From contig NZ_JAUFQO010000002.1 of assembly GCF_030409835.1 (NCBI RefSeq), positions 186,001 to 250,000 on the forward strand: 64,000 nucleotides of DNA. Reading direction: 5' to 3'. Origin of the DNA: Lutimonas halocynthiae (lineage in GTDB: Bacteria > Bacteroidota > Bacteroidia > Flavobacteriales > Flavobacteriaceae). Position 1 is the first letter of the stretch. Each line of letters starts with the position of its first letter. The translations under genes were made by a program, and so were the position numbers. Below the pieces are notes generated by a model that was not told where the DNA came from, did no database searches, and saw only the letters and a list, made by a program, of their open reading frames with translations. Shown here in pieces: positions 37,251 through 55,857 of the stretch.

Positions 37251-37372
37251 TACCATCATCAGAAAAATGGTATAGGACGAACAGTATTATATTATTTCCG
37301 AAAGTGCTTAAATATTTACCGAGTGGTATAAATGCAATGAGAAATAAGTGCTTATTTGTAGAGTGGGGGAGT
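37251..37372. repeat. Accessory-region repeat module, copy 1
   Basis: Starts with a 22-base TACC-N14-GGTA dyad, continues through TTTCCGAAAGTGCTTAAATA and a degenerate GAGAAATAAGTGC stretch, and ends at GAGTGGGGGAGTAAA before a terminator. The first 100 bases closely match copy 12 (49480-49590), upstream of the C39-like gene. Confidence 0.7.
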
Positions 37373-37408
37373 AAAAAACCCCTTCAAGAATGAATCTCAA
37401 AGGGGGTA
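37373..37408 (-). terminator. Terminator for the 37462-37890 lipoprotein gene
   Basis: Stem ACCCCTT/AAGGGGGT around a 15-base loop, with a T-run on the - strand side. The same loop words (CAAGAATGAATCTC) recur in the terminator at 39181-39212. Confidence 0.7.
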
Positions 37409-37461
37409 AATATGGGAAATTGTTTTATTATTTTTATGTATCAAATTCTAAATTTTCCATG

Positions 37462-37890
37462 TTATATATTTTCAACAACAGGGACTTCAATAGTTAAGAA
37501 CATATCTTGCCCATCATCATCTTCCCCTTGATAAAATTTAAATATATAAGGTTCTTTCTGCAGCACTTGTACTGGAATTGAGAATGTAGTTTCTGTAATA
37601 TTTAAAGTACACGGAACACCATCATCTACATGTGCAATAGGGTAAATAAGCCTTGAAGTTCCTTCATAGAAGTAATCGTATTGATTATAGAAAAAATAAC
37701 AACTATTTGGTAACTCTATGGTAACATTAATTCGATAGGTCTGCCCGTAAATAAATTCATCTGGAACTTCAGCGCTTTTAGTACCTATATATTCTAAATG
37801 GTAGTCGTGGTAGTCATCGTCGTCGCTACATGATGCTAGCGTTACCGAAAAGGCAACAATTAAAATTAGTAAATACTTGAAATTTTTCAT
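37462..37890 (-). CDS. Lipoprotein of unknown function
   Basis: A 142-residue lipoprotein. The start at 37890 gives MKNFKYLLILIVAFSVTLASCSDDDD, a clean SPII signal with an acidic stretch after the cysteine, the usual surface-export signal context in Bacteroidota. The longer open frame adds eight unlikely residues. The mature part looks all-beta (IYGQTYRINVTIELPNSCYFFYNQYDYFYEG ... FLTIEVPVVENI). No family was recognised. It is bounded by its own terminator and repeat copies. Confidence 0.65.
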   Translation of the reverse strand: MKNFKYLLILIVAFSVTLASCSDDDDYHDYHLEYIGTKSAEVPDEFIYGQTYRINVTIELPNSCYFFYNQYDYFYEGTSRLIYPIAHVDDGVPCTLNITETTFSIPVQVLQKEPYIFKFYQGEDDDGQDMFLTIEVPVVENI

Positions 37891-37967
37891 CTTATCTCTT
37901 TTAAGTTTCCACAAATTTATACTTCTGTATTTGATATGTAGACGACTTCACTTGTCGTATCAGGCAG

Positions 37968-38014
37968 GCTTCAAGAAGAAATACGTACTAATTTATGAGA
38001 GTTGAGGTCAAAAG
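37968..38014. repeat. Accessory-region repeat module, copy 2 (short)
   Basis: The CTTCAAGAAGAAATACGTAC core (coding LQEEIRTN in the + frame) followed by a diverged GAGTTGAGGTCAAAAG, ending at the terminator of the next - strand gene. Confidence 0.7.
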
Positions 38015-38045
38015 AAAACCCCGAATGATGATTCAAACGGGGTTC
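38015..38045 (-). terminator. Terminator for the 38065-38406 gene
   Basis: AACCCCG/CGGGGTT stem around a GAATGATGATTCAAA-type loop, with T's following on the - strand. The loop sequence recurs at 38520, 39767 and 41358. Confidence 0.8.
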
Positions 38046-38064
38046 TCAGTTAGATAGGGTTTTA

Positions 38065-38406
38065 TTATTCGATATAATATAAAACTTTACTTGATTTCCT
38101 TGTTTCTGTATAATATTCGTTTAACTCGATATCAAATGTATTATTTGAATATTTACGTAATTTTAACGTGGTTTCTATTTCACCTTCTTTTTCCGGAATA
38201 CCGATAATATATGAGTGTATAATGGAATCCCGTGTTTTATTAGTTTGTATAACTACCGAATCTTTTACGGTGAAATAACAATCTTCTATATGTGCTTCCT
38301 GTTCAAACGATGGTGTCACTACCATATGTTCAAATGATGTGTAGTTCTTTTGTGAATATGATATCATACCGAATATCATAAACAAGGGTATAACTATTTT
38401 TTTCAT
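38065..38406 (-). CDS. Small secreted protein of unknown function
   Basis: A 113-residue protein with a Sec signal (MKKIVIPLFMIFGMISYSQ); the start at 38406 is chosen because the longer frame adds a charged 14-residue extension in front of it. The mature part is beta-rich (CYFTVKDSVVIQTNKTRDSIIHSYIIGIPEKEGEIETTLKLRKYSNNTFDIELNEYY). No family was recognised. It has a terminator 20 bp after its stop and repeat copies on both sides. Confidence 0.62.
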   Translation of the reverse strand: MKKIVIPLFMIFGMISYSQKNYTSFEHMVVTPSFEQEAHIEDCYFTVKDSVVIQTNKTRDSIIHSYIIGIPEKEGEIETTLKLRKYSNNTFDIELNEYYTETRKSSKVLYYIE

Positions 38407-38506
38407 TTTTGATAATCCTTTGTCAAATCTAAAAAAATTATACTTCAACTATACTGATTAAAATCATGTAGTTAGAATACAAATTTCTAAGGATTAGGAT
38501 ATTGTA

Positions 38507-38544
38507 TTGGGTAGTGGAATGAAAAACCCGAATGATGATTCAAG
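38507..38544. repeat. Accessory-region repeat module, copy 3 (tail only)
   Basis: The tail GGGTAGTGGAATGAAAAACC followed by CGAATGATGATTCAAG; the right arm of the terminator stem is missing, so this copy is broken. Confidence 0.7.
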
Positions 38545-38623
38545 TCAATCAATCCCCTGACCGAACTCATTGCAGTTAAAATCAGAATCATGGAAATTTA
38601 TCGATAAGGAGATTCAATTAAAA

Positions 38624-39046
38624 ATGAATAAAAGAAATAAATATTTTCATTTCAGTATTTTGCTCATTACCTTATTGATATGCAGTTCTTGTGGACGTCA
38701 ATTGGTCATACCATACACCACTGATTCAAATGGAGGCGCTCAAATATTTCTAAAACCCATTAAACCAACCAACAGAACTTTTATCACAATTAACGACAGT
38801 CTTATAGTCAATAAAAAATTTATTAAATCAGTCACAATTGACCATCTTCCTCCTGGGATTTATAACATTAATTACGCTTCAGATGTTAATACTATGATTG
38901 CCAAATTAGACACAACAATGACTATTGAAGTAGCGGGTCATAAGGAAATATCAAAAATCATCGATGTGCCATCATACAACACCTGGTATTATATATCCAA
39001 TCTTTTAATTGGTTTACTTTTTATTGTACCATTCTTATTCATATAA
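38624..39046 (+). CDS. Lipoprotein with C-terminal membrane helix, unknown function
   Basis: A 140-residue protein. ATG 38624 gives MNKRNKYFHFSILLITLLICSSCGRQ, an SPII lipoprotein signal. The middle (about residues 30-110) resembles a PEGA-like beta-sandwich with KPTNRTFITINDSLIVNKKFIKSVTIDHLPPGIYNINY. The C-terminus is a membrane helix (WYYISNLLIGLLFIVPFLFI), an odd combination with a lipid anchor. The upstream in-frame extension to 38570 is unlikely. It is one of few + strand genes in the accessory region. Confidence 0.6.
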   Translation: MNKRNKYFHFSILLITLLICSSCGRQLVIPYTTDSNGGAQIFLKPIKPTNRTFITINDSLIVNKKFIKSVTIDHLPPGIYNINYASDVNTMIAKLDTTMTIEVAGHKEISKIIDVPSYNTWYYISNLLIGLLFIVPFLFI

Positions 39047-39106
39047 ATTTTAAAATAATAGATTATATAAGAATATGCTATTAACGATTTTCAGTAATAG
39101 TTAGTC

Positions 39107-39180
39107 TCAGGAAATAAGCAATTTACCCTGTTGAGGGTATGGAGATATGCGTGCTTATGATTGGGAGTGGTGGAAATCAA
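39107..39180. repeat. Accessory-region repeat module, copy 4
   Basis: Contains the 16-base dyad at 39124-39139, a diverged middle and the tail GGGAGTGGTGGAAATCAAAA, and runs into the terminator at 39181. Confidence 0.7.
39124..39139. promoter_or_regulatory. 16-base dyad TACCCTG-TT-GAGGGTA
   Basis: A 7-2-7 arrangement like NarL-type response-regulator sites. An identical dyad lies at 51452-51467. No gene start lies in the matching position here, so it is an orphan copy carried by the repeat. Confidence 0.5.
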
Positions 39181-39212
39181 AAAACCCTTCAAGAATGAAT
39201 CTCAAAGGGAGT
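39181..39212 (-). terminator. Terminator for the 28-residue peptide gene
   Basis: CCCTT/AAGGG stem with the same loop as the terminator at 37373-37408 and a T-run on the - strand, about 50 bases after the stop at 39260. Confidence 0.6.
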
Positions 39213-39259
39213 AAATATGGGAAATTGTAGTTGTTCTTGAATAGATTGTGTAAAAAGTT

Positions 39260-39346
39260 TTACCCGAAAGTTCTCAAAAAGATAAGTGTGAAAGTTATTA
39301 GGGTGAATAAGATAAATGTTCCGAATATTCTAATTTTTGTTTTCAT
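39260..39346 (-). CDS. Possible 28-residue membrane peptide
   Basis: ATG at 39346, stop at 39260. The peptide is one hydrophobic helix (residues about 7-24, IFGTFILFTLITFTLIFL) ending RTFG. Support comes from its terminator 50 bases downstream and from a similar short helix-ending-in-FG protein at 41059-41199 set between the same repeat copies. No ribosome site is obvious, which is common in this phylum. A chance open frame cannot be excluded. Confidence 0.4.
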   Translation of the reverse strand: MKTKIRIFGTFILFTLITFTLIFLRTFG

Positions 39347-39430
39347 TGTGTGTTTATTTAACTTATATAAAGTTAATGCCACTTCAATGATAATCATGCG
39401 ACATCTGATGTCCTGATCTCATAAGGTTTG

Positions 39431-39528
39431 TGTTAAGGTGTTAGAGTGGTGGAATGAATAAACCCGAATGATGCTTAAATCCAGAAATAATGGAATGGAT
39501 GCTGGATAATGTTCATTTGTGGTCATAA
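39431..39528. repeat. Accessory-region repeat module, copy 5
   Basis: GAGTGGTGGAATGAATAAAC tail followed by a second unit whose + frame reads PEIMEWMLDNVHLWS and stop, matching the STPEIRKWMRENVHLWE ending of other copies. It abuts the hairpin at 39527. Confidence 0.75.
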
Positions 39529-39563
39529 AAAAAAGGATACGTTTTGAAGCGCATCCTTTTTTA
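39527..39563. terminator. Strong bidirectional hairpin terminator
   Basis: AAAAAGGAT/ATCCTTTTT stem of more than ten pairs with flanking A- and T-runs. No intact gene ends beside it; it probably belonged to a lost gene. The region 39347-39806 otherwise holds repeat copies only. Confidence 0.75.
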
Positions 39564-39649
39564 TATCAGCTGATAAAACAGCTTCTTAATCATAGCATCA
39601 AACTAAACTGATTTCTGGTTATAATATTGCATCTAAAAGAAAAAAACCT

Positions 39650-39758
39650 GCGTTCTGAAACGTATCGTCGAAGGATTCAAGAATTAGCAGATCTTTATGA
39701 GGCTTCAATTCAAGAAATAAGGAAATTGGTGTATTAAAATTTTTGGGAGTGGTGGAAT
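39650..39758. repeat. Accessory-region repeat module, copy 6, with HTH-like remnant
   Basis: The + frame reads RSETYRRRIQELADLYEASIQEIRKLVY then stop, a helix-turn-helix-like segment. It is followed by NFWEWWNEKPE across the tail GGGAGTGGTGGAATGAAAAA. One of the clearest copies of the coding remnant. Confidence 0.75.
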
Positions 39759-39788
39759 GAAAAACCCGAATGATGATTCACTCGGGCT
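39759..39788 (-). terminator. Terminator for the DUF6090 gene
   Basis: CCCGA/TCGGG stem, loop ATGATGATTCAC, T-run on the - strand, about 20 bases after the stop at 39807. The left arm also codes the NEKPE end of the repeat's + strand peptide remnant. Confidence 0.8.
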
Positions 39789-39806
39789 AAAGGCATTACG
39801 ACCCAC

Positions 39807-40826
39807 TTATTCTATTTTTTCAAATTCCAAGATTAATTCATCATGGCTTACGAATTTGTAACCCATAATTTTTTTATTGTGGTCTCTTTTGAAAATAATA
39901 TATGCATTGGGAGCTTGATCAATACCAAACGTATCTCTGGCAATCTGAAAAACATTGAACGTTTGCTCTTCGTCAATATAAATATTATACTTATCAGTTG
40001 TAACATTCCCATAATATGGCGGTTCTGAATTTAATTGTTTATAAATGCCAACGTACTTTTTTAATGTGTCAGTATCATGAATTGAATTCAATATATGATC
40101 TGGCAGTTCCATTTTTCTTCCTGTAATTTTAGATAAATCAGCATATATAACACTTGCATCACTTTTATACTCTAAATATTTAAAATTAAACAAAAGCGTC
40201 TCAAAAAAGCCAACACTATTTTTATAAAATGGGTCGTTTACGTAATACTCCTTCATTTCTGCTGTCAACCCTTGTCTTGTTTTATAAGCCCATTTTTTAT
40301 TTTCTCCTAATTCTCTTATATTTTTTAAAACTTCATTTTCAAGTACTTCATTAAACTTTTCAATATTGTTTTTTTTCTCGATATATAAATTCTTTAACTT
40401 ATCGACTACAGCTTTATGTGAAGGCTTAATATAATCTATGTTGTTCATCAATTTGTTGAAACCATTGGCATGAATATCAAATGGTTCATTGTTATAGGTT
40501 AAATAAGATAAATGTTTATTTTTTGAATAATCCTCTATTGTCAGTCTGTCATTGACCACTAAATAAATTATTGAATCCTTTTCTTTATACCATATCAATA
40601 TTTCATCCAATCTTAATATATCTTTTGAAAGATCCTCTTGAATTTCAATAAATATATTGTTCAATTTCTCCTCATTCTTCTTCCCCTCATTCCAATTATT
40701 AATCTGCAATGCAATGAGTATCCCAATAACCACCAGTACAATTTCTCCTATAGCATATCTAGCATACTTTAAAGGTTTGTTATCATCTGCCATTTTTTTA
40801 CGGATTTTTCTGAAGAAAGGAATCAT
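39807..40826 (-). CDS. DUF6090 family membrane protein
   Basis: A 339-residue protein. The N-terminus MIPFFRKIRKKMADDNKPLKYARYAIGEIVLVVIGILIALQINNWNEGKK is the DUF6090 signature: amphipathic basic helix, single membrane helix (about residues 27-43) and the QINNWNE motif. The rest is a helical extracytoplasmic part (LSKDILRLDEILIWYKEKDSIIY) plus a C-terminal beta-rich extension (about 265-339) absent from the shorter paralogue at 52417-53178. Function of the family is unknown; copies are often amplified in Flavobacteriia. Confidence 0.82.
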   Translation of the reverse strand: MIPFFRKIRKKMADDNKPLKYARYAIGEIVLVVIGILIALQINNWNEGKKNEEKLNNIFIEIQEDLSKDILRLDEILIWYKEKDSIIYLVVNDRLTIEDYSKNKHLSYLTYNNEPFDIHANGFNKLMNNIDYIKPSHKAVVDKLKNLYIEKKNNIEKFNEVLENEVLKNIRELGENKKWAYKTRQGLTAEMKEYYVNDPFYKNSVGFFETLLFNFKYLEYKSDASVIYADLSKITGRKMELPDHILNSIHDTDTLKKYVGIYKQLNSEPPYYGNVTTDKYNIYIDEEQTFNVFQIARDTFGIDQAPNAYIIFKRDHNKKIMGYKFVSHDELILEFEKIE

Positions 40827-40885
40827 AAGTTCAGTTGTTGAAGTCTCAATATAGGCTTAATACTATTGGCAAATGAATCTTAAAG

Positions 40886-40985
40886 GACCAATGATGGTAA
40901 ATAACTTTCGAAAGCACCTAAATATTTACCAGAGGAAGAACATTAAGAAGAAATACGGGCTAATGTTTGGTAATGGTGGGCAAAA
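40886..40985. repeat. Accessory-region repeat module, copy 7
   Basis: GACCAATGATGGTAA (degenerate dyad), TTTCGAAAGCACCTAAATAT, AAGAAGAAATACGGGCTAAT and GGTAATGGTGGGC in module order, ending at the terminator of the 46-residue protein gene. Confidence 0.75.
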
Positions 40986-41017
40986 GAAAAACCCGAATGA
41001 AACGAATCATTGGGGTT
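40986..41017 (-). terminator. Terminator for the 46-residue protein gene
   Basis: AACCCGAATGA pairs with TCATTGGGGTT (one mismatch) around a short loop, with a run of T's on the - strand. About 40 bases after the stop at 41059. Confidence 0.8.
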
Positions 41018-41058
41018 GTGAATTACTAATTTAATCGGAAGATATTAAATGATTGACG

Positions 41059-41199
41059 CTAACCGAATAAAATTACTAAGGTTGTTGATACAGAAATTAA
41101 AACCATTAAGATGTAAAGAAATTTTTCACCTTCTAGTAATTTTACAATTTTAGTCGATTTGTCATTAGTTGATTCATTCTTTGGAACTGATGTTATCAT
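41059..41199 (-). CDS. Small C-terminally anchored protein, 46 residues
   Basis: ATG at 41199, TAG at 41059. A polar, lysine-rich N-terminus (SVPKNESTNDKSTKIVKLLEGEK) is followed by one membrane helix at the very C-terminus (FLYILMVLISVSTTLVILFG), so it is likely tail-anchored. It has a strong terminator and repeat copies on both sides, the same setting as larger genes of this region. Not recognised as a known family; it resembles in layout the 28-residue peptide at 39260-39346. Confidence 0.6.
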   Translation of the reverse strand: MITSVPKNESTNDKSTKIVKLLEGEKFLYILMVLISVSTTLVILFG

Positions 41200-41287
41200 G
41201 ATAATAAGATTTTAAGAGGATAAAGTTATTCTTCTTCAACAAAACAAATTATGACAAATATCACGGAATGAATAACTTACTCTAAAT

Positions 41288-41370
41288 AGGGTATGTAAAA
41301 CATGAGAACTTTAAGAGGTTATGTGCTAATGTGTGGGAGTGGTGGGATGAAAAGGATGATGATTCAGATC
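41288..41370. repeat. Accessory-region repeat module, copy 8
   Basis: GGGTA half-dyad, ACTTTAAGAGGTTATGTGCTAATG and the tail GGGAGTGGTGGGATGAAAAG followed by GATGATGATTCAG; it ends before the 41382-41756 gene stop and here lacks a terminator stem. Confidence 0.7.
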
Positions 41371-41381
41371 GGATATGACCA

Positions 41382-41756
41382 TCATTTTTTCTTTTTGCCA
41401 ATGGCCATGCCAATAAATCCACCGATTATGGATAATGTCCAGATGCCAATAAAAATAATCCATAAATAAGATGTCCAAAAACTTTGTTCACCGGTAATTG
41501 GAAATATTCCAGCCGCGTTACAAATAAGTACAGTATATAAAAAGCTTTTGGGATAATGTATAGATATCAAGAAGCTAGCCGTAATTACGAAAACACCGTA
41601 TAGGCTGTACGCAATATATGAACCCATTTCACCGCCAAACCCAAATCCATCTATCATTAAATGTGCAAAAATGAAAATAAGAAAAAAGGAAATTATCGCG
41701 GTTGAAATAGAAAATACCCAAGCGGGTTCTCCGGCAAATTTTGACTTTTTTTTCAT
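41382..41756 (-). CDS. Four-helix membrane protein of unknown function
   Basis: A 124-residue protein with four hydrophobic segments (about residues 12-34, 44-63, 70-90, 95-118), starting MKKKSKFAGEPAWVFSISTAIISFFLIFIFAHLMI and ending in a lysine cluster. No catalytic motif or family is recognised. It is flanked by repeat copy 8 downstream and by the large esterase/TSP3 gene upstream, about 105 bp away. Confidence 0.65.
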   Translation of the reverse strand: MKKKSKFAGEPAWVFSISTAIISFFLIFIFAHLMIDGFGFGGEMGSYIAYSLYGVFVITASFLISIHYPKSFLYTVLICNAAGIFPITGEQSFWTSYLWIIFIGIWTLSIIGGFIGMAIGKKKK

Positions 41757-41862
41757 AATTCAAATTTTGAATTATTAAATTTTGGGAATAGAATAAAGTT
41801 ATTGATTAAAAGATTAAGATTCAAGAAAACCTCATATTCCGTTATGGCGAAATCTTGGATTT

Positions 41863-44800
41863 TTATTTTTTAATTAACCTTCTAACAACCGATCCTTTTT
41901 CTGAATATATTTTTATAATGTACATTCCTTTTGTTAAATTATCAGTTTGAACCTGTTCAAAACCTGAATCAATTTCAATAATCTTTATTCCTAAGTAAGA
42001 GTATATTTCAACCTTTTCTATTAGAATGCTTTCTGATTGAATAGACAAACTATTTGAAACGGGGTTTGGATAGAATTTAATTGACTTGTCCAATTTCTGA
42101 TCCTCAATACCTAAAGTTTGTGATTCAGAGCAACCTTCTGGGTTAACTGCAGTATTTGCTAAGGTTCCAGGGCACTGATCCGTATCATTCATCACGCCGT
42201 CATTGTCGTCATCCAATTGAGAATCGGAACAACCATTGCCATCTACAGAATTACCATTAGGAGTATTTGCACATTGATCAACATTATTCATCACGCCATC
42301 ATTGTCGTCATCTAGCTGACTATCTGAACAACCATTAGCGTTAACATTTTCACCAGTAGGAGTATTAGGGCAAGTATCAATATTATCATTGACTCCATCA
42401 TTATCTGTATCTAATTGTGATGTGCTGCACCCATTAGAATTCACTGATTCGCCATTTGGAGTATTTGCACATTGATCAACATTATTCATCACGCCATCAT
42501 TGTCGTCATCTAGTTGACTATCTGAACAACCATTAGCATTAACAGTTTCACCAGCAGGAGTATTAGGACAGGTGTCAATATTATCATTGACTCCATCATT
42601 ATCTGTATCTAATTGTGATATGCTGCACCCATTAGAATTCACCGATTCGCCATTTGGAGTATTTGCACATTGATCAACATTATTCATCACGCCATCATTG
42701 TCGTCATCTAGTTGACTATCTGAACAACCATTAGCGTTAACATTTTCACCAGTAGGAGTATTAGGGCAAGTATCAATATTATCATTAACTCCATCATTAT
42801 CTGTATCTAATTGTGATGTGCTGCACCCATTAGAATTCACTGATTCGCCATTTGGAGTATTTGCACATTGATCAACATTATTCATCACGCCATCATTGTC
42901 GTCATCTAGCTGACTATCTGAACAACCATTTGAATTAACAGTTTCACCAGTAGGAGTATTAGGGCAAGTATCAATATTATCATTGACTGCATCATTATCT
43001 GAATCTAATTGTGAGCTGCTACACCCATTAGAATTCACTGATTCGCCATTTGGAGTATTTGCACATTGATCAACATTATTCATCACACCATCATTGTCGT
43101 CATCTAGTTGACTATCTGAACAACCATTAGCATTAACAATTTCACCACTAGGAGTGTTCTGACACAAGTCATTATTATCATTCACTCCATCAATATCGCT
43201 ATCCAATTGTGATGTGCTGCATCCACTTGAATTCACTGATTCGCCATTTGGAGTATTTGCACATTGATCAACATTATTCATCATGCCATCATTGTCGTCA
43301 TCTAGTTGACTATCTGAACAACCATTAGCATTAACAATTTCACCGCTAGGAGTGTTCTGACACAAGTCATTATTATCATTCACTCCATCAATATCGCTAT
43401 CCAATTGTGATGTGCTGCATCCACTTGAATTCACTGATTCGCCATTTGGAGTATTTGCACATTGATCAACATTATTCATAACGCCATCATTGTCGTCATC
43501 TAGTTGACTATCTGAACAACCACTTGAATTAACTGTTTGGTCAGCAGGAGTATTAGGACAGGTGTCAATATTATCATTGACTCCATCATTATCTGTATCT
43601 AATTGTGATGTGCTGCATCCATTCGAATTCACTGATTCGCCATTTGGAGTATTTGCACATTGATCAACATTATTCATCACTCCATCATTGTCGTCATCTA
43701 GTTGACTATCTGAACAACCGTTTGAATTAACAGTCTCTCCCGCTGGAGTATCAGGGCAGATATCATTATCGTCGTTCACACCATCATTGTCGGTATCGAT
43801 CGCCAAAGGAGCATCTTCTATGGGAAACTTATTAAAACTAACCAATTCGAGATTTTTTGTATTAGTGATATAATTACCACTATTAACTATGGATTTTGAA
43901 AACCCCAAATGACTGATAGATGCATTGGGTCCTGGATAGTCAGAGAGCTTAATGACAATATTATTTCCTGAAACTTGAATATCAGTTATAGTAGAGGAGC
44001 CAGCATTTTCTATTTTAAAATTTTCGACTGGATTATTCATTACCAAGCCAGAGGCATCTGTTTCTAATATTAGTGTTTTATCGTCTAACAAATAGCTATT
44101 CGTGATCATTGGCGTTTCTATGTCTGACTCATTTAATCCATTATAAAAATCTCTTTTGACAAGTTTGTAAATTCTTTTCGCAAATTCTTCATATCCTCCT
44201 GTAAATCCAAAATGACAATCAATATTTCCATTGGGTGGGCTATAAATTAATGCAGCAGTTTGCATGATATGAACCTTTGTATCGTTTACAGCCAGTCTTC
44301 GTTGTGCTTCCTTGATTTCCATCAAACTTGAGGTACCACATGCACTTTTAGATTGAAAAATATAATATTCTTTTATACTGGGGTAATCTTCTTGCCAATC
44401 TGCCTTTAAACTTAGAAAAGCATTATAATATTCATCAGTAGATTGCGCCCAATCCGCTTCTCCTTGAGACCAAAACAAGGCCCGAACATTATTTTTCAGT
44501 CCGGTTTCATTCAAACGTATTAATAAACGGTTGTAATTATTTTTGGTAATTGGCTGGTCTTCAGGGGCATTTTTTAAAAAAAAATTAATAGGTCTAGCTG
44601 CTCTGGCTCCATTAAAAATGGCAATTGGAACTTGTTCTGCATCTAATATCATTTTCCCCAATTTCAAGCCCCACTGTCCAACAAAACCTGGTATCCATTC
44701 CCCTTCATTTCCAGTAGGTGAGCCATCTCCAAGTGCTTGATTCCAAATCATTTGCCTTAGTAATCCATCACCACCAATTGCGCTTGCAAAAGTTCTAATA

Positions 44801-48042: not shown

Positions 48043-48154
48043 TTTTAAATAAAGCACATGATTTTTAAAACAATGAAATCCAAAATAATAACATTAATTT
48101 AACTAAAAATAGTTAAGATAATTACTACTCAGAATTTCCAATTCTTCCATAACT

Positions 48155-48400: not shown

Positions 48401-48419
48401 TTATATACAAGTCATTCTC

Positions 48420-49433: not shown

Positions 49434-49479
49434 AGGCGGAATTATTATAAGAATAATAATAACATAAATATAGTATTAA

Positions 49480-49585
49480 TACCCTTGGCAGAAGAATGGT
49501 TTAGGACGAAAAGTATTATATAGTTTCCGAAAGCACTTAAATACTTGCCGAAAGCTACAAGAAGAAATACGTGCCAATGTGAAAG
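49480..49585. repeat. Accessory-region repeat module, copy 12
   Basis: TACC-N14-GGTT dyad, TAGGACGAAAAGTATTATAT, TTTCCGAAAGCACTTAAATA and ACAAGAAGAAATACGTGCCA; its + frame reads KLQEEIRANVKEW. It matches copy 1 closely. Its right end is joined exactly to the NAD kinase fragment. Confidence 0.75.
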
Positions 49586-49846: not shown

Positions 49847-49850
49847 AATA

Positions 49851-49888
49851 TAGAAAAACCGAATTAAAATTTTAATTCGGTTTTTTAC
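49851..49888. terminator. Near-perfect palindromic terminator
   Basis: AAAACCGAATTAAAA/TTTTAATTCGGTTTT, a stem of about 15 pairs without a real loop, with A- and T-runs at both ends. It ends the 49902-50438 transcript on the - strand. Confidence 0.9.
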
Positions 49889-49901
49889 AAGGAGAAAATT
49901 T

Positions 49902-50438
49902 TTATGATTTTCGCCGAGAATAACTTTCAATTTCGCATGAACCCGACTCATGAATGTTTCCGATCACATCGTAAGTTTTAGAATCATTAGAATTTATGAT
50001 GTTGATAGTGATGGCACCAGATACTCGACGTGTCTGTCTGTTGATTTCCAGACGCCCTTCTAAATTAATTGACTCCGAATGTACGGTGGTCAACATACCT
50101 CCAAATCTCTGAACGATAAAGTCATTATTTTCGGTAGAGCTAAACGAACAGCTGTAAACAAAAATGGTGTTATCAGTTGAAACTTCTAGGTTTCCATATT
50201 TTCCTAGAACTCCATTTATGGTAGAGTTATCTTTGATTAAATACGTGACGTCGCCAACTTCAGGGCAGGAAGTAATACTGGTGCCATCAGATTGCGAAAT
50301 ATTCAATTCGAACATTTGTGAACCAATAACATCTGGTGTGGTAACAAAGTCATTTTGTATGGTAATAAAGTCATCATCATTATCATTAGAACAACTGAAG
50401 ATCAAAATTAAGAACGAAAGTAGGATTGCTTTTTTCAT
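49902..50438 (-). CDS. Lipoprotein of unknown function
   Basis: A 178-residue SPII lipoprotein; ATG 50438 gives MKKAILLSFLILIFSCSNDNDDD with an acidic run after the cysteine. The frame extends 17 residues further up, but that part is not signal-like. The mature protein looks beta-rich (TVHSESINLEGRLEINRQTRRVSGAITINIINSNDSKTYDVIGNIHESGSCEIE). No family was recognised. A palindromic terminator lies 15 bp after its stop. Confidence 0.65.
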   Translation of the reverse strand: MKKAILLSFLILIFSCSNDNDDDFITIQNDFVTTPDVIGSQMFELNISQSDGTSITSCPEVGDVTYLIKDNSTINGVLGKYGNLEVSTDNTIFVYSCSFSSTENNDFIVQRFGGMLTTVHSESINLEGRLEINRQTRRVSGAITINIINSNDSKTYDVIGNIHESGSCEIESYSRRKS

Positions 50439-50489
50439 GGTGAGGGAATTAAAAAATTGGTTAAAATTTAATGTTTTGTTGAATTGCAC

Positions 50490-50724
50490 TTAACCAGTTT
50501 AGGCTCTTTAACGCCTCTCCTTTTAATTAATGTTAACTGAAATGAATCTCGAAAACTTATTTTGTTTGCTCAATATGAATAGCGATTTCATTTTGAATTA
50601 TAAGTTCTTCATCAGATGGGATACAACCAAAAAAATGCAATAAATGGTGGGTAGTAATAATTTAAGTTTCCATAATAAAGGGATTTAACCTTTAAGTTAT
50701 TTAACTATATGTTTTATCCCAAAC
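50490..50724. other. Gene-free AT-rich spacer
   Basis: Upstream of the lipoprotein gene and before repeat copy 13. No gene, hairpin or promoter was assigned with confidence. Confidence 0.4.
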
Positions 50725-50868
50725 GAGTTAGGACGAATACTACAAATTATTGTCCAAGTGTAGAGGAATATTTACCGAACTAAGTTCAACGAAACTGATC
50801 TAATGCGATAAACTTCAGAAATAAGGAAATTGCTGTATTATTATTTTTGGGAGTGGTGGAATGAAAAC
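50725..50868. repeat. Accessory-region repeat module, copy 13
   Basis: GTTAGGACGAATACTACAAA, GAATATTTACCGAAC, then a + frame SEIRKLLYYYFWEWWNENPLPIK across the tail TTGGGAGTGGTGGAATGAAA, running into the next gene's terminator. Confidence 0.75.
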
Positions 50869-50894
50869 CCCCTACCGATTAAGTAAGGGATTAT
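50869..50894 (-). terminator. Weak terminator for the 50897 gene
   Basis: CCCTAC/GTAAGGG stem with one bulge and a T-rich - strand flank, overlapping the end of the gene. Confidence 0.5.
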
Positions 50895-50896
50895 TT

Positions 50897-51313
50897 TTAT
50901 TTTTTTGTAAACACTGTAATTGTTCCATCCTCACCTGTTAAAGTAAGTTTATTACCAGAAACAACATAACTATTAATTCCAGAAATAACGTACTTATCAT
51001 TATCAGATTCCTCGTCAAATGTTATTGTCAATGTACCCATTAGAACGTGATATTTAAAACGATTCGTAATATAACCGACTTTCTCACTAATCATATTTAT
51101 ACCATTCCTATCTATACTGCCAGTTTGGTTTGTTTTGAAAATTGTTGTGGTTTCCCATTTTAAACTAGGGTCCGGTGGTATTTTATTTAGTCCAGAACTT
51201 GTCGATGATTGTTGTACCCATGTGCCTGCTACACTTCCAAATTCATCCTCGACACAAGATACAGAAAGCATGACAGCCATAACCATAATTAAAATATACT
51301 TCATTTTTCTCAT
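50897..51313 (-). CDS. Lipocalin-like lipoprotein
   Basis: A 138-residue SPII lipoprotein (MRKMKYILIMVMAVMLSVSCVEDE). The mature part begins GSVAGTWVQQSS and continues with short beta-strands ending YVVSGNKLTLTGEDGTITVFTKK, the pattern of small lipocalin-like or DUF5004/DUF5640-type proteins in Bacteroidota. Starts at 51304 (MKYIL) or 51337 are also possible. A full TATCTTTG -7 box and a 16-base dyad lie upstream. Ligand unknown. Confidence 0.7.
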   Translation of the reverse strand: MRKMKYILIMVMAVMLSVSCVEDEFGSVAGTWVQQSSTSSGLNKIPPDPSLKWETTTIFKTNQTGSIDRNGINMISEKVGYITNRFKYHVLMGTLTITFDEESDNDKYVISGINSYVVSGNKLTLTGEDGTITVFTKK

Positions 51314-51396
51314 AATATCATTTAAAATAGCTTTCAAAAATAGCTTCTATAGATTGTATTTAATTACGGTTTCTAGTAATCTGATAAAATTTTCCC

Positions 51397-51404
51397 CAAA
51401 GATA
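51397..51404 (-). promoter_or_regulatory. -7 promoter box TATCTTTG
   Basis: Full match to TAnnTTTG on the - strand, about 84 bases before the lipocalin-like gene. The 16-base dyad is centred about 55 bases further upstream. Confidence 0.5.
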
Positions 51405-51451
51405 TATTAAGCAAAATCTTAAACCATGAGAATTATCAACCTATTGGTTTT

Positions 51452-51467
51452 TACCCTGTTGAGGGTA
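51452..51467. promoter_or_regulatory. 16-base dyad TACCCTG-TT-GAGGGTA
   Basis: Perfect except for the central bases; same sequence as 39124-39139. Lies upstream of the -7 box of the lipocalin-like gene, in an activator-like position. Confidence 0.5.
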
Positions 51468-51521
51468 TGGGGTTAGGTAGCCTGAGCCACATTAAAGTGG
51501 GCTTATTTTGAGAAGTATTTG

Positions 51522-52091
51522 TTAAAAAGGTGGTGGGGGATTAGAGTCGTCTGGAGTAATTTCACATAATTTCAAACTATCAACATTCACTTTTGATTTT
51601 ACCCACTTGCTTGTCCAGTAGTAATATCCATGAGCATTTCCTGTATAACCCTTCTGAATTAGTGTGTCATTTCGAATATGGAGAAAAATCTGATCTTGAT
51701 CGGGGCCGTTGATATTTTTTTGTTGGATTTCAAGATAGTCCTCGGTATTTGAACCGATACTTATTTCGAAAAAATCACCAAACAACATTATTGAATAACA
51801 GTTGTGACTTGGAACAACTGAACCCCATCGGGAAAAAATTTTATTTGGGGCCCTTAGTATTCTCATAAAAACCTTTCTTTCTGGAGGTGAAACATCTATT
51901 CTTTCCCAAACACTCATGTCATATTTTTGAAGAAACATTATTGGCTCACCATCTTCCTCCGTTGGTTCGCTATCTTCTTCACTTGGCTCACTATTTTCTT
52001 CACTTGATTCGTTGTCTACTTCCAATTCAAATAAAGTGCAGGAAGTTAAATTTAGACTGAATACAAGTAAAATGAATAATGCCTTTTTCAT
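51522..52091 (-). CDS. Lipoprotein with acidic repeat linker
   Basis: A 189-residue SPII lipoprotein (MKKALFILLVFSLNLTSC). After the lipid anchor comes an acidic low-complexity linker built of SEE(N/D)SEP / TEEDGEP units (about residues 28-50), then a globular domain with several Trp/Tyr (WERIDVSPPERKVFMRILRAPNKIFSRWGS ... YYYWTSKWVKSKVNVDSLKLC). It ends in a proline run (NPPPPF). No family was recognised. The linker suggests surface display. A dyad lies 78 bases upstream of its start. Confidence 0.65.
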   Translation of the reverse strand: MKKALFILLVFSLNLTSCTLFELEVDNESSEENSEPSEEDSEPTEEDGEPIMFLQKYDMSVWERIDVSPPERKVFMRILRAPNKIFSRWGSVVPSHNCYSIMLFGDFFEISIGSNTEDYLEIQQKNINGPDQDQIFLHIRNDTLIQKGYTGNAHGYYYWTSKWVKSKVNVDSLKLCEITPDDSNPPPPF

Positions 52092-52168
52092 AGTGCAAAT
52101 TAAATCGAAATCAAATGTAAATATGTTTTAGAAAACTATGATACGGATAACCACAATTCAATAAAAAA

Positions 52169-52184
52169 TACCCTGATGAAGGTA
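52169..52184. promoter_or_regulatory. 16-base dyad TACCCTG-AT-GAAGGTA
   Basis: 78 bases upstream of the acidic-linker lipoprotein gene, directly joined to long repeat copy 15 on its other side. Confidence 0.5.
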
Positions 52185-52400
52185 CGTGTTAATGTATAGG
52201 ACCGGCGGTTCCACTAATCGCCCTTTTAACGACAATAATTCTAAAGTGGACATCTACTACCTAAATCTATTTTAAATGCAAAAAGTGTCGAATGGCAGCA
52301 GCTTAATTTAAAAAATGAGAATGATGCTTCAACTTGAGAAGTAAGGAAATGGATGCGGGAGAATGTTCATTTATGGGAATGCCCCCTACGAACTAAGCTA
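52185..52400. repeat. Accessory-region repeat module, copy 15 (long, type C)
   Basis: Same order as the copies at 45511 and 46438: GGCGGTTCCACTAATCGCCC, GTGGACATCTACTACCTAAA, then a + frame ending EVRKWMRENVHLWE-like (AGTAAGGAAATGGATGCGGG). Ends in a decayed CCCTA/TAGGG stem just before the DUF6090 pseudogene. Confidence 0.8.
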
Positions 52401-52416
52401 GGGCTAAATGAAATGA

Positions 52417-53178
52417 TCACTTAAAGATATGCGAAATATCCGAGTAACTGTTTTCATTTGGGTTGTTTAGTATCTTCAAAACTTCTCTTGTTCGCACTAA
52501 TCCATAATGCGCTCCATCTTTGTTACTATGCATCATTCCACTATTCACTTTTACTAAGTTATAATATGTTCTCAAGAATTTTACTTCGTCAAATTTTTCT
52601 TTCTGCTTGCTATAGAAAAGGCTTGTCTTATCTTCCATAAACAAAAAATTAAATTCAACACTCCATAATGACTCTGAAAACTCTTGATTGTCTAGAAGTC
52701 TTGATGAATTTCTTTCCCTAATAGCATAAAAATCCATCAACATCACCAAATGATCTTCTTGAAACAAATCAATATCCCCTGTTGACAACAATTAATTAAA
52801 AGTTGAATTATGCAATTCCTCCATTGGATAAGTAGGATACCACTCCATGGATGTTACTATTTCTATGATTGAGTCTATTGTTGCATTTGGCTTATCAATT
52901 TGCCTTTCAGTTTTTCTCCAGGCTCTAATACCTTTTTCGCAAGAAGCAATATAATTGTTCAGATTTATAGTATCTCTTGCTAAATCATGATTGAGTCTCT
53001 GAATATATACCTCCTTTTTTAAATCATTTTTCCTTTGCTCATTCCAATAGTTGATCTGAATCGCAATCAGTATTCCCAGAACTACTAAAACAACCTCCCC
53101 AATAGCATATTTAAAATACTTGAATGATTTGTTGCTAGTAATAAGGTCATGACGGATTTTGCGGAAGAAATGAAGCAT
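52417..53178 (-). pseudogene. DUF6090 gene interrupted by one in-frame stop
   Basis: Paralogue of the 39807-40826 gene. The N-terminal 128 residues (MLHFFRKIRHDLITSNKSFKYFKYAIGEVVLVVLGILIAIQINYWNEQRK ...) carry the full DUF6090 signature. At 52792-52794 a TAA interrupts the frame, which continues without shift for another 124 residues. The context HNSTFN-stop-LLSTGDIDLF suggests a GAA to TAA change in a typical NELLSTGDI segment. The second half could not start well by itself. Either a recent pseudogene or a sequencing error. Confidence 0.78.
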
Positions 53179-53282
53179 CTGTATAAAAGTTAAATTACAA
53201 GACTATCACTTTAGATAATTAATTCCATTGACAATGGTCAGTACTTCTATTGATTATGGTCAACTTGAGTCACATGAAATTC

Positions 53283-53345
53283 CCTTCAGAAATAAGGAAA
53301 CCGCTGTATTATTATTTTCGGGAGTGGTGGAATGAAAAACCCCAT
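53283..53345. repeat. Accessory-region repeat module, copy 16
   Basis: + frame SEIRKPLYYYFREWWNEKPHSIM across CGGGAGTGGTGGAATGAAAA; lies between divergent genes, so here it cannot serve as a 3' end. Confidence 0.75.
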
Positions 53346-53421
53346 TCGATTATGAACAGGTGTCAAACTCAAGGCACACGTAAACATTAATTCATATCTT
53401 TAGTGATATTAACCAGAACAA

Positions 53422-53799
53422 ATGAAAAATCTCCTTCTACTTGCTTTTATACTTTTAGTTAGTACAGTTCAAGCCCAATGGACTAAAGCAGATTTTGAGA
53501 AGATTTTTAAAGAATATGATTATAAGAAGAGTCCCTATTTTGAAGAGTATCATTTTCATTTAAAGGGTGATGTTCCTGAGGATTATAAATATAATTGGTG
53601 GGAAACTAACAAGCGACCAGAATTAAGAGATAAAAGCATACTCATTTACATTGAAGATACACAAATTATGATTTTGTATGAGGATATAATCGACTTAGAA
53701 TACTTTATCTCTGATTTTCAACGCATCAAAGGTGAAGTATATAATAGAGGTCTTTGGCAACTAAATCTAAAAATAAGAGTTCGGAAAAGAAATCCATAA
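53422..53799 (+). CDS. Small secreted protein of unknown function
   Basis: A 125-residue protein with a Sec signal (MKNLLLLAFILLVSTVQAQ). The mature part has many aromatic and acidic residues (WTKADFEKIFKEYDYKKSPYFEEYHFHLKGDVPEDYKYNWWETNK) and a predicted strand/helix end (SILIYIEDTQIMILYEDIIDLEYFISDF). No family was recognised. A TATCTTTA box about 30 bases before the ATG may be the promoter. It is one of the few + strand genes of the accessory region. Confidence 0.62.
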   Translation: MKNLLLLAFILLVSTVQAQWTKADFEKIFKEYDYKKSPYFEEYHFHLKGDVPEDYKYNWWETNKRPELRDKSILIYIEDTQIMILYEDIIDLEYFISDFQRIKGEVYNRGLWQLNLKIRVRKRNP

Positions 53800-53866
53800 A
53801 AAACTCCCCACTAATAGCAAGGATTTCCCTTACCAAAAAGTCAATATCAGTTTCTACCTTTGACCT

Positions 53867-53962
53867 ATGGTAGAAATGCAAGGACTTACGATACAAGAAT
53901 TAGCCGATCTATATCACGCTTAACCTTCAGAAATAAGGAAATGGATGCGGGAGAATGTTGGG
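53867..53962. repeat. Accessory-region repeat module, copy 17, with ATG-started HTH remnant
   Basis: The + frame starts at an ATG: MVEMQGLTIQELADLYHA, stop, PSEIRKWMRENVGSGF. GLTIQELADLY...SEIRKWMREN has the spacing of a helix-turn-helix. It ends 26 bases before the stop codon of lipoprotein paralogue B. Confidence 0.75.
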
Positions 53963-53987
53963 AGTGGTTTTATTAGGATTAACTTTT

Positions 53988-54647
53988 TTAACTGCAGTTT
54001 AAAGCTTCAACAGCCTGATCACGTTCTATCTCTAATCGTTGAATTTCTATATCCAACATTTGAGAAAGAGCTATCAACTTATCCTCATTTTCGTCTAAAA
54101 TTTTTTTATTTTCTTTGAACCAGTCTAAAAATTGACTGGCAAGTTCTTTTGTTTCAATGCCTCCTTCCGAAAATAGTTTAACAATGCCTTCTACCAATTC
54201 TAAATCTAAAAGCCTTGTTGCATCTCTCCATTCTTGACTTTCTATATCTGAAGCGTTCACGAGTTCATCAATTTTGACCATCATCTCTTCATTCCATAAG
54301 AATAGCTTTTCCTCTAATACTTCTATATCTCCGCCTTCTGATTCAAAGGAAACTTTTAGTTGATCTAGTTTCACAGAATAATTCTCCCAAATATTAAAAG
54401 CTTCCATTAGCGGGTCTTCTTCTAAATATGACAATTCACGAGCCTCTTCTATCATATTGTTGTATTCATTTATGATACTATCCGTATTTGTAGCACATTC
54501 TAAAACTTCTTCGCTAATTTCAATATCAGAAAAGTCAATACCATAGCCTAGTTCAATATAGCCTAAATCGTCAAAAATTGGGCCGTCATCACCACAACCA
54601 GACAATAATAATGTAATAGCTAACAATCCTAGTAATTTCTTAATCAT
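53988..54647 (-). CDS. Coiled-coil lipoprotein, paralogue B
   Basis: A 219-residue SPII lipoprotein (LLGLLAITLLLSGCGDDGP), the close paralogue of the gene at 45708-46358. From ECATNTDSIINEYNNMIEEAREL to the final ALNCS the two can be aligned with few changes and almost no gaps; only the linker after the lipobox differs. It is helical, acidic and rich in heptads. The downstream junction with the repeat and the upstream dyad are also shared, so the unit was duplicated with its flanks. Function unknown. Confidence 0.75.
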   Translation of the reverse strand: MIKKLLGLLAITLLLSGCGDDGPIFDDLGYIELGYGIDFSDIEISEEVLECATNTDSIINEYNNMIEEARELSYLEEDPLMEAFNIWENYSVKLDQLKVSFESEGGDIEVLEEKLFLWNEEMMVKIDELVNASDIESQEWRDATRLLDLELVEGIVKLFSEGGIETKELASQFLDWFKENKKILDENEDKLIALSQMLDIEIQRLEIERDQAVEALNCS

Positions 54648-54712
54648 AACAGTTGTTTAATTTATGCGTAGATACATGAATTAAATATTTATTCAAAATT
54701 TCAAGGCAAATA

Positions 54713-54728
54713 TACCCTCTACACGGTA
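54713..54728. promoter_or_regulatory. 16-base dyad TACCCTC-TA-CACGGTA
   Basis: 66 bases upstream of lipoprotein paralogue B, the same position as the dyad in front of paralogue A (64 bases). On the - strand it runs into TATATTTG and, 19 bases later, TATTTAAT. Confidence 0.5.
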
Positions 54729-54960
54729 TAGAACTTCAAGAAGAAATAAGTGCTAATGTCCGGGAGTGGTGGTTCTAATAATCACACTTTTACCCCCGAT
54801 AAATCTGAAGTGGACACCTACTGCCTAAATCTATTTTAAAGCCAAAAAGTGGCGCATGGCAGCACCTTAAATTGAGAAAATCGAATGATGCTTCACATTC
54901 AGAAATACGCAAATTTCTGTATCATTATTTTTGGGAGTGGTGAAATGAGCAGTAATGATA
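54729..54960. repeat. Accessory-region repeat module, copy 18 (long, type D)
   Basis: The most complete copy: CTTCAAGAAGAAATAAGTGC (LQEEISANVREWW), TTTTACCCCCGATAAATCTG, GTGGACACCTACTGCC, then HSEIRKFLYHYFWEW in the + frame and a last GGGAGTGGTGAAATGAGC tail. Confidence 0.8.
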
Positions 54961-54980
54961 CTTCAGTTCCCATAAGGCCA

Positions 54981-55268
54981 CTATTTTTTTAAAATCTTAT
55001 CTATTGCCACTGCTAAATCGAAATCTTTCTTCGTTAGTCCATCCGCGTCATGAGTATTGAGCGCAATATTCACTTTGTTATATACATTTTTCCAATTTGG
55101 ATGATGGCCCGACTTTTCAGCGACCAAGGCCACAGCTGTCATAAAAGAAAAGGCCTCAATAAAATTTTTAAAGAGAATTTCACGATGGATAAATTTTCCT
55201 TTTAATAGCCAGGCCTGGTCAATGAGGCCCATACTGCTTTGAATTTCTTCTTCGTTTAATTTGGTCAT
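54981..55268 (-). CDS. phhB: 4a-hydroxytetrahydrobiopterin dehydratase (pterin carbinolamine dehydratase)
   Basis: A 95-residue enzyme that recycles the 4a-hydroxy-pterin cofactor used by aromatic amino acid hydroxylases. The signature is complete: [37 protein letters not shown] (about residues 51-87), with the catalytic His-His-Pro and the second His in THDADGLT. It has no hydroxylase neighbour. It is the right-most gene flanked by repeat copies, and unlike the others it is a core metabolic gene, so the array may have grown up against it. Confidence 0.92.
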
Positions 55269-55857
55269 GGTCTTTATGTTTTATGCATTTTTTTAGAATG
55301 CTTATTTAGAGCAAGTTAAATTAATAAAAAGGAATATATAACAAATAGATCACTATTAATATCCTGGTCTGTCTTTTAGAGTGAAACAATAGTGCAGAAG
55401 TAAGGAAATGGATGCATGAGCTTGTTCATTTGTGGGAATGAAAAATCCAGATGATAGATCAAGTCTATTCAATTCCATTTTGAAAAGGAAAACCACATAT
55501 TTCGCTAGAGCGAAATCTCCATTTTTATTTGGAGGAATTTAGACGAGTTATTTAGATTGAATTTAAATACATGTACTATTGATAAATACCCATTATCGCT
55601 ATTTGGTATTTTCAGTTTTATTAGTTATTTCGAGATCCAAAAACACGCTATTTTGTCTATGAAAAAAATCAAACTAAAAAAGTAATTAATGGCTGGAATG
55701 TATAATAAATTTAACCGGAATAAAATCATCACCTAAACGTTTTAAACAATTAATAAAGAGTATTATTTTTTTATTTATAGGGATTTATACTTTATGAAGA
55801 AGTGATATATATCAGGGAAAGTTTAATTCACAAACTATAGTTTAGTAAAAATAAAAA
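55269..55857. other. Long spacer with repeat copy 19 and a palindrome
   Basis: About 590 bp. It holds repeat copy 19 (55385-55465; + frame SAEVRKWMHELVHLWE), a perfect TTTCGCT-AG-AGCGAAA palindrome near 55509-55526 whose surroundings resemble 41825-41862, and a TACC-N14-GGTA dyad at 55587-55608. The rest is AT-rich without a credible gene. Confidence 0.6.

What the first reader, a model, noticed from the sequence alone, without database searches (positions are those of the whole stretch)
37251..55465. A repeat-built, cassette-like gene array of about 18 kb
Seen: nearly every gap between genes from 37.3 to 55.5 kb holds a copy, whole or partial, of one degenerate module. Its recurring words are CTTCAAGAAGAAATACGTGC, TTTTACCCACGATAATTCGG, GTGGACATCTACTACCTAAA, AGGAAATGGATGCGGGAGAA and GGGAGTGGTGGAATGAAAAA. 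I count about 18 copies, four of them long (45511, 46438, 52185, 54729), and I saw none in 1-36 kb or after 56 kb. The module usually runs from the upstream dyad of one - strand gene to the terminator of the next. Inference: the short lipoprotein and membrane genes were added or copied as units with this module at their edges, an accretion system without a visible integrase or attC site.
Basis: partly seen in the sequence, partly recalled or inferred. Interest (0 to 1): 0.82.

Follow-up and report, generated by a model that had tools for sequence, protein, structure and literature searches.

The report
Shuffled gene array beside transfer RNA
Next to a transfer-RNA gene, a marine bacterium and its sister species keep a row of small accessory genes whose connecting DNA pieces stay recognisable while the genes between them are swapped, which hints at how such bacteria collect and exchange new genes.

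Summary
The repeat is real. Pieces of it lie in 16 of 17 gaps between 37.1 and 55.9 kb and nowhere else in the window; a reversed-sequence control gave 1 hit against 99. It is not one module but a mosaic of head pieces (toward a gene's start) and tail pieces (toward the next gene's stop and terminator), on the strand opposite most array genes. In the own genome 30 of 30 hits at E<=0.001 fall in two clusters, beside tRNA-Arg(acg) and tRNA-Ser. Related pieces were found at 16 loci, all in the genus Lutimonas; 11 have a tRNA or tmRNA nearby. At orthologous spots the ends stay while the gene changes: one head precedes a cyclase in one species and a DUF6090 gene in another; one DUF6090 gene keeps its head and first ~145 nt in three species but not the remainder. 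Best reading: a tRNA-anchored accessory island in which shared gene ends serve as homology for exchanging ORFs, with integrases present in relatives' islands. Part of the module descends from a tiny gene that is intact elsewhere. New variant of a known kind; the mechanism is inferred.

The parts
37149..55857 (.). module-bearing array: short lipoprotein, membrane and other accessory genes, mostly on the - strand, with module pieces in 16 of 17 gaps
37238..37390 (+). head C + tail T1, upstream of the ODP-family metallo-beta-lactamase-fold gene 36417-37148 (-)
37963..38032 (+). tail T1
38500..38542 (+). tail remnant (T1/T3)
39120..39199 (+). head B remnant (hairpin TACCCTGTTGAGGGTA) + tail T1
39430..39533 (+). 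tail T1 + T2 remnant, in a gap that holds three tails in a row (gene loss between them is inferred)
39672..39771 (+). end of head A (weak, E 9e-3) + tail T3, next to the stop of DUF6090 gene 39807-40826 (-)
39763..39788 (-). intrinsic-terminator-like hairpin at the tail edge, on the strand of the array genes
39807..40826 (-). DUF6090 gene (conserved ~140-nt 5' anchor, variable remainder)
40848..41004 (+). head C + tail T1; head C starts 22 nt upstream of the DUF6090 ATG
41301..41370 (+). tail T1, 12 nt from the stop of 41382-41756 (-)
45512..45684 (+). long copy: head D + tail T2
45708..46358 (-). lipoprotein-like gene, duplicate of 53988-54647 (84.2% identical)
46455..46646 (+). long copy: head D + tail T3
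48266..48337 (+). tail T1, with an LQEL-type coding-like piece from 48233
49467..49591 (+). head C + tail T1 remnant, upstream of the C39-peptidase-like gene 48420-49433 (-)
50725..50875 (+). head C remnant (weak, E 8e-3) + tail T3
51414..51469 (+). head B without a tail
52202..52388 (+). long copy: head D + tail T2, upstream of 51522-52091 (-)
53273..53347 (+). tail T3
53783..53968 (+). head A + tail T2: copy with an internal stop of a ~41-aa ORF that is open in G013 and G014
53988..54647 (-). duplicate of 45708-46358
54729..54953 (+). long copy: tail T1 + head D + tail T3
55383..55451 (+). last tail (T2) before the tRNA side
59442..59458 (+). 17-nt direct repeat of the tRNA-Arg 3' end (att-like)
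59556..59630 (-). tRNA-Arg(acg), the anchor of the island; 59556-59572 is the second att-like copy

Best explanation
A tRNA-Arg-anchored accessory island of Lutimonas in which neighbouring transcription units share their ends. An array gene has a head (promoter region; for DUF6090 genes also the first ~140 nt of the ORF) and a tail (sequence after the stop, often with a terminator). The ends are alike between unrelated genes, so they offer homology at which incoming or neighbouring ORFs can be exchanged, lost or duplicated, while integrative elements add new array segments next to the tRNA 3' end. SHOWN: confinement, mosaic ends, different genes at fixed ends in orthologous spots, tRNA att-like repeats, an integrase in a sister species' island at this locus. 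INFERRED: that homologous recombination through the shared ends does the exchanging, that the heads are promoters, that integrases delivered the window island. The tails and head A derive at least in part from copies of a tiny (~40-85 aa) gene read opposite to the array genes; the window copies look decayed.
For: Confinement: 30 of 30 own-genome hits at E<=0.001 lie in C12:225.5-241.4k (19) and C8:136.5-144.6k (11). Ends: 27 of 45 tails lie within 60 nt of an opposite-strand gene's stop, against mean 9.2 and maximum 18 in 2000 random placements. 12 of 15 C heads lie within 125 nt upstream of an opposite-strand gene: 8 DUF6090 genes, an ODP beta-lactamase-fold gene, a C39-like gene, a cyclase, and a gene with only a DUF6090-like start. 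Terminator-like hairpins: 18 found in 37-56 kb, 7.9 (sd 2.5) in shuffles; four on the - strand sit at tail edges. Exchange: G011 564.4k / G013 91.2k share head C and a 95%-identical flank but carry a cyclase or a DUF6090 gene; G011, G013 and G017 share 1.8 kb at 91.6-93.8% that stops at the same point 141-149 nt into a DUF6090 ORF; 32 DUF6090-type starts are on average 56-76% identical over the first 140 nt and about 30% from +220. D spacers of two unrelated genes: 77.7%; of a true duplicate whose genes are 84.2% identical: 70.2%. Site: direct repeats of the tRNA 3' end in three genomes; a tyrosine recombinase 0.2 kb inside the nearest repeat in G011.
Against: No strain pair differing by one event was available; comparisons are between species, so the route (homologous, illegitimate or site-specific) is not seen. 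In example 3 the 3' joint of the moved ORF lies where the two tails differ, so tail homology does not explain it, and the sequence upstream of its ATG differs too. Not every D pair fits: 46455 against 52202 is only 65.3%. 15 of 45 tails are farther than 60 nt from an opposite-strand stop and 3 face + genes. Five of 16 module loci have no tRNA in the fetched stretch. No integrase and no far-end att-like repeat were found at the window array.
Confidence: 0.55

Rival explanations
1. Ordinary birth and death: one gene plus spacer was tandemly duplicated many times, the genes diverged beyond recognition and the spacers kept a trace.
For: One duplicate pair with spacers exists (45708/53988); DUF6090 genes and an LRR-containing family occur in several copies.
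Against: In that pair the genes (84.2%) are more alike than the spacers (72.9%; head D alone 70.2%), while the D spacers of two genes that do not match each other by blastp are 77.7% alike. The C head is kept while the gene differs at an orthologous spot.
Confidence: 0.15
2. The module is a working element in its own right: a regulatory region or tiny gene that each array gene needs (for example a divergently read ~40-aa regulator or antitoxin-like partner), kept by selection.
For: Three intact tiny ORFs show fewer amino-acid changes than random placement of the same changes (three pairs, fractions 0.0005-0.001); several C-head columns are invariant in 15 copies.
Against: The window copy at 53783 has a stop and other pieces carry stops. 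The codon test on pooled pieces is weak (T4 12 of 300 shuffles reach it, T23 6 of 300 with an equal signal on the other strand, head A 30 of 300, the rest 38 or more). The other ORF pair is not significant (0.064). No Rfam match and no Pfam family over its cut-off.
Confidence: 0.2
3. Site-specific cassette system (integron-like or rAID-like) whose recombinase acts on the module itself.
For: Mostly co-oriented short genes and conserved intergenic motifs, and tyrosine recombinases in two sister islands; rAID is defined by such features (PMC12247911, passages).
Against: No integron integrase over cut-off, 0 attC-like pairs in 17 gaps by a simple pattern, no recombinase at the window array, joints at several places rather than one.
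Confidence: 0.08
4. A short transposable element (MITE-like) that inserted between genes.
For: Many similar copies in gaps.
Against: Confined to two clusters of the genome, one orientation per region (89 hits on one strand, 0 on the other, in 11 regions turned to module orientation), internal mosaic, placed at gene ends.
Confidence: 0.02

Closest known systems
[quoted passage not shown]
   Same: Array of short, largely co-oriented genes with conserved intergenic motifs; tyrosine recombinases in sister islands (rAID definition seen in passages of PMC12247911).
   Different: No recombinase at the window array; no immunity domain among the window proteins scanned by Pfam; pieces are mosaic; the array sits beside a tRNA gene.
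Additive flexible genomic islands
   Same: Gene cassettes that vary in presence and number, linked to integrases or transposases (as described in passages of PMC4033161). That such islands often use tRNA genes is recalled; the word tRNA does not occur in that paper's text.
   Different: Shared spacer ends between unrelated genes are not part of that description; they point to exchange inside the island as well.
DUF6090 (PF19578) genes of Flavobacteriaceae
   Same: Window 39807-40826 is a member (49.7 bits, cut-off 23.5); many DUF6090-type genes fill the orthologous islands.
   Different: Most array genes of the window are not DUF6090. No paper in the held library uses the name.
Integron cassette arrays
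   Same: Rows of small unrelated genes with recurring intergenic sequence.
   Different: No integron integrase over cut-off and no attC-like pairs by a simple pattern; pieces at both gene ends, not a single 3' site.

Membership tests
rAID | tyrosine recombinase beside the array | tested here: not met
   Nearest Phage_integrase hit in the own genome is C12:281.65k, about 36 kb beyond the tRNA. In sister islands: G011 met; G013 tmRNA island has Phage_int_SAM_5 over cut-off but Phage_integrase just below (24.9 against 27.1)
rAID | co-oriented short genes of about 100-300 codons | tested here: inconclusive
   Most window array genes are on the - strand and short, but 38570, 46783 and 53422 are +, and 41863-45309 is 1148 aa
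rAID | conserved intergenic motifs | tested here: met
   16 of 17 gaps hold a piece of this genus's own motifs; the rAID motifs themselves were not available for comparison
rAID | orphan immunity genes | tested here: inconclusive
   No immunity domain by Pfam in 14 proteins of the array and its edges; not all array ORFs were scanned; function untested
integron | IntI-type integrase | tested here: not met
   TIGR02249 over cut-off in 0 of 1 genome; below-cut-off matches are other tyrosine recombinases, and the 14 control genomes match below cut-off too
integron | attC sites | tested here: not met
   0 R''/R' pairs in 17 gaps by a simple pattern; shuffles mean 0.52; no attC covariance model was available
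tRNA-anchored genomic island | abuts a tRNA with direct repeats of its 3' end | tested here: met
   tRNA-Arg(acg) 59556-59630, repeat at 59442; the far-end repeat was not found in the window
tRNA-anchored genomic island | content differs between relatives at the same locus | tested here: met
   G000, G011, G012, G013 and G017 at the same tRNA
DUF6090 | PF19578 match over cut-off | tested here: met
   window 39807-40826
MITE-like element | dispersal over the genome, either orientation | tested here: not met
MITE-like element | target-site duplications and empty sites | not tested
   not looked for

The most novel reading that the evidence does not exclude
The shared heads, tails and DUF6090 5' anchor are a dedicated exchange frame: a modular 'socket' in which promoters, membrane anchors, variable protein parts and terminators are reassorted between islands at several tRNA genes, with a tiny divergently read gene as part of the frame, giving fast turnover of surface proteins without an integron.
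Probability: 0.15. Interest if true: 0.82.

Novelty: new variant of a known kind. Interest (0 to 1): 0.56.

Why it matters
How a rAID array acquires its genes is described as not yet clear in PMC12247911 (passage). Here orthologous islands of several Lutimonas genomes show ends that stay while ORFs change, with joints mapped to within a few nucleotides. That makes the question testable by resequencing one genus, and it suggests that shared promoter-side and terminator-side sequence, not only integrases, can drive gene turnover in accessory islands.

Tried and rejected
Module as known RNA: no Rfam match up to E 0.5 in 37-56 kb. Module as phage or plasmid piece: no megablast match of 45.5-55 kb in plasmids; only weak tblastn matches (E 1 to 6) of the tiny peptide in phages; 0 viral contigs with the T4 core pattern. 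Module outside the genus: the exact T4 core in genome contigs gave 5 stretches, 4 in Lutimonas saemankumensis and 1 in a Flavobacteriaceae MAG (the own genome may be left out there). Of 60 relatives searched with one copy, 5 matched, the own genome included; of the others one is in another genus (G047, 37 nt, E 0.005) and was not followed. Of 199 family genomes 5 matched with the 706-nt query: own, G011 and three of other genera with 31-42-nt matches, two inside genes that I would call murI-like and exonuclease-like by eye and one between ORFs. One search scored only 2 first-look candidates per genome and at most 25, so counts are lower bounds and weak copies elsewhere could be missed. Tiny ORF as protein: 35 of 119 relatives matched at E<=1, but the strong ones are own genome, G011, G013 and G014, 15 of 299 family genomes matched, own and G013 clearly, and 13 of other genera weakly (E 6e-4 to 0.01), 12 of these in ORFs of 661-713 aa; not followed. 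Whole module as coding: weak. The likeness of the C-head edge (AATATA, reverse complement TATATT) to the Bacteroidetes -7 box is recalled, not tested; the sigma-70-type scan found no excess (106 against 100.1 in shuffles).
Full report
WHAT IS THERE. The window is G000:C12:186001-250000. Between 37.1 and 55.9 kb lie short lipoprotein, membrane and other accessory genes, mostly on the - strand. Recurrent DNA lies in 16 of 17 gaps. Exact-word search against shuffles, repeat finding and own-genome BLAST with one copy agree. Seven piece profiles gave 99 hits at E<=0.1 in 484 kb of held sequence and 1 in the same sequence reversed. Window copies served as seeds, so the window count itself is partly circular.

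ANATOMY. The pieces are of two kinds. Heads (A, B, C, D) lie toward the start of an opposite-strand gene; tails (T1, T2/T3, T4) lie toward the stop of the next one. Of 45 non-overlapping tails in 11 regions, 27 end within 60 nt of an opposite-strand stop, 15 are farther and 3 face a + gene; random placement in gaps of the same regions gives mean 9.2, maximum 18 in 2000 runs. Of 15 C heads, 12 lie within 125 nt upstream of an opposite-strand gene, 1 is farther, 1 follows a + gene and 1 had no complete left gene in the stretch. Heads A fit this less well: of 7, 2 lie within 125 nt of an opposite-strand start, 2 are farther, 3 follow + genes. In one search, at E<=0.01, all 89 hits in 11 regions (turned so that modules read +) lie on one strand; searched alone, the window has 1 of 37 hits on the other strand, a 22-nt B hairpin. 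Terminator-like hairpins on the array-gene strand sit at tail edges at 37405, 39209, 39788 and 53360. C heads keep an invariant AATATA at the gene-proximal edge in 15 copies.

MOSAIC. Heads and tails combine in many ways: C-T1, C-T3, C-T4, D-T2, D-T3, B-T1, B-T4, A-T2, A-T4. The same head serves unrelated genes: C precedes DUF6090 genes, an ODP beta-lactamase-fold gene, a C39-like gene, a cyclase, and in G012 a gene with only a DUF6090-like start. The six D-spacer pairs are 65.3, 70.2, 74.4, 77.7, 78.5 and 78.5% identical. The true gene duplicate (45708/53988, genes 84.2% identical) has 70.2%; the D spacers of the two unrelated genes have 77.7% between them, though one of them has only 65.3% to the first duplicate. 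This argues against the unrelated genes being old copies of each other that merely diverged.

WHERE ELSE. A 706-nt query of eight joined pieces hit 7 of 22 genus genomes at E<=0.001: own 30, G013 19, G011 12, G014 5, G017 3, G012 1, G010 1. I dropped the G010 hit, 36 nt inside a gene. Own hits are confined to this island (19) and C8:136.5-144.6k (11), which also holds an AbiH gene and an HSDR_N gene. The remaining hits form 16 loci. Eleven have a tRNA or tmRNA in the stretch fetched: tRNA-Arg(acg) in G000, G011, G012, G013, G017; tRNA-Arg(tcg) in G011, G013, G014, G017; tRNA-Ser in G000; tmRNA in G013 (for G011, G013 and G017 the acg tRNA rests on DNA match and sequence, not on ARAGORN). Five do not: G011 393k and 1789k, G013 C5, and two contigs of G014. 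How often a random locus would lie near a tRNA was not computed.

SAME LOCUS IN SISTERS. DNA from tRNA-Arg(acg) through the DUF2007 gene matches in G011, G012, G013 and G017. The tRNA 3' end is directly repeated in the window (59442, 59556; no shuffle of 100 has two matches), in G011 (580604, 580767, 601124) and in G017 (271007, 271189). In G011 the repeats at 580767 and 601124 enclose a segment with a tyrosine recombinase and an HTH_17 protein. In the window no far-end repeat and no integrase were found.

GENES CHANGE, ENDS STAY. (1) G011 564.4k and G013 91.2k share head C and a 95%-identical flank with a 345-aa gene; the gene behind the head is a cyclase in one and DUF6090 in the other, and homology fades in the 5' untranslated part. 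(2) Around G011 578.2-580.05k, G013 87.88-86.06k and G017 266.64-268.49k, 1.8 kb is 91.6-93.8% identical and breaks at the same place, 141-149 nt into a DUF6090 ORF; beyond it no nucleotide match was found, and the G011 and G017 proteins align poorly. (3) One DUF6090 ORF is 92.6% identical in G011 and G013 from ATG to about 8 nt past the stop, but the flanking heads and tails differ. Over 32 DUF6090-type starts (one with an early stop), mean identity is 56-76% up to +139 and about 30% from +220. Rapid divergence of the remainder of the ORF is an alternative for (2), but the drop from above 90% to none is abrupt.

TINY GENE. Where head A is well kept, it leads into a tiny ORF. Three 40-codon copies (two in C8, one in G011) differ by 12-15 residues where random placement of the same changes gives 17.9-21.9 (fractions 0.0005-0.001); a second pair (G013, G014) is not significant (9 against 11.9; 0.064). 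The window copy at 53783 has a stop. Codon tests on the pooled pieces are weak. I conclude that part of the module is the remains of a small gene family of unknown function; a selected role is a rival, not a result.

MECHANISM. Shown: confined, mosaic, end-anchored repeats; different ORFs at fixed ends between species; att-like repeats in three genomes and an integrase at the same locus in one sister. Inferred: homologous recombination through shared heads and the DUF6090 anchor, gene loss leaving tails behind (39047-39806), and repeated integration at the tRNA. Against: the 3' joint in example 3 lies where tails differ, and no single recent event was seen.

KNOWN KINDS. It works most like rAID arrays (definition seen in passages of PMC12247911) and additive flexible islands (passages of PMC4033161), but it fails the rAID recombinase criterion at this locus and both integron criteria tested. 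Searches of the held library for DUF6090 (0 papers), for Lutimonas with genomic island (0 papers) and for Flavobacteri with intergenic repeat, gene cassette and tRNA-Arg (2 papers, neither about this by title and abstract start) found nothing describing it; the lists were seen as listings only, apart from the two papers named.

Noticed in passing
window 42169-43868: About fifteen tandem 99-nt units inside the 1148-aa gene 41863-45309 (SASA esterase domain, thrombospondin type 3 repeats, Por secretion tail).
   Followed up: partly
window 52417-53178: A DUF6090-type gene split into two adjacent open frames, looking like a broken copy.
   Followed up: no
L019 (G000:C8:130000-149999) 5696-16462: Second own-genome island with module pieces beside tRNA-Ser(tga), carrying AbiH and HSDR_N genes and two intact tiny ORFs.
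   Followed up: partly
L056 2983-4182 (G012): Gene whose first residues resemble DUF6090 and then continue as a lipoprotein, behind a C head: a possible chimera.
   Followed up: no
L052 605-783 (G011:C1:580604-580783): A 171-nt stretch between two tRNA-Arg 3'-end repeats is 100% identical to G013 at its tRNA, while the flank beyond the tRNA is 87% identical.
   Followed up: partly
L168-L176, L178-L180 (other Flavobacteriaceae genera): The tiny ORF shows weak similarity (E 6e-4 to 0.01) to part of 661-713-aa ORFs in 12 genomes of other genera: perhaps chance with one conserved protein, perhaps a distant relative.
   Followed up: no
window 59203-59346: Two 47-nt copies, 94% identical, starting 97 nt apart, just before the att-like repeats.
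   Followed up: no
window 36324-36378: 26-nt inverted repeat (81% complementary, 3 nt apart) between a LacI-type regulator gene (label by eye) and the beta-lactamase-fold gene.
   Followed up: no
L163 11042-11208 (G011:C1:636k): C head joined to what reads like an internal DUF6090 remnant, near tRNA-Arg(tcg): a scar-like joint.
   Followed up: partly
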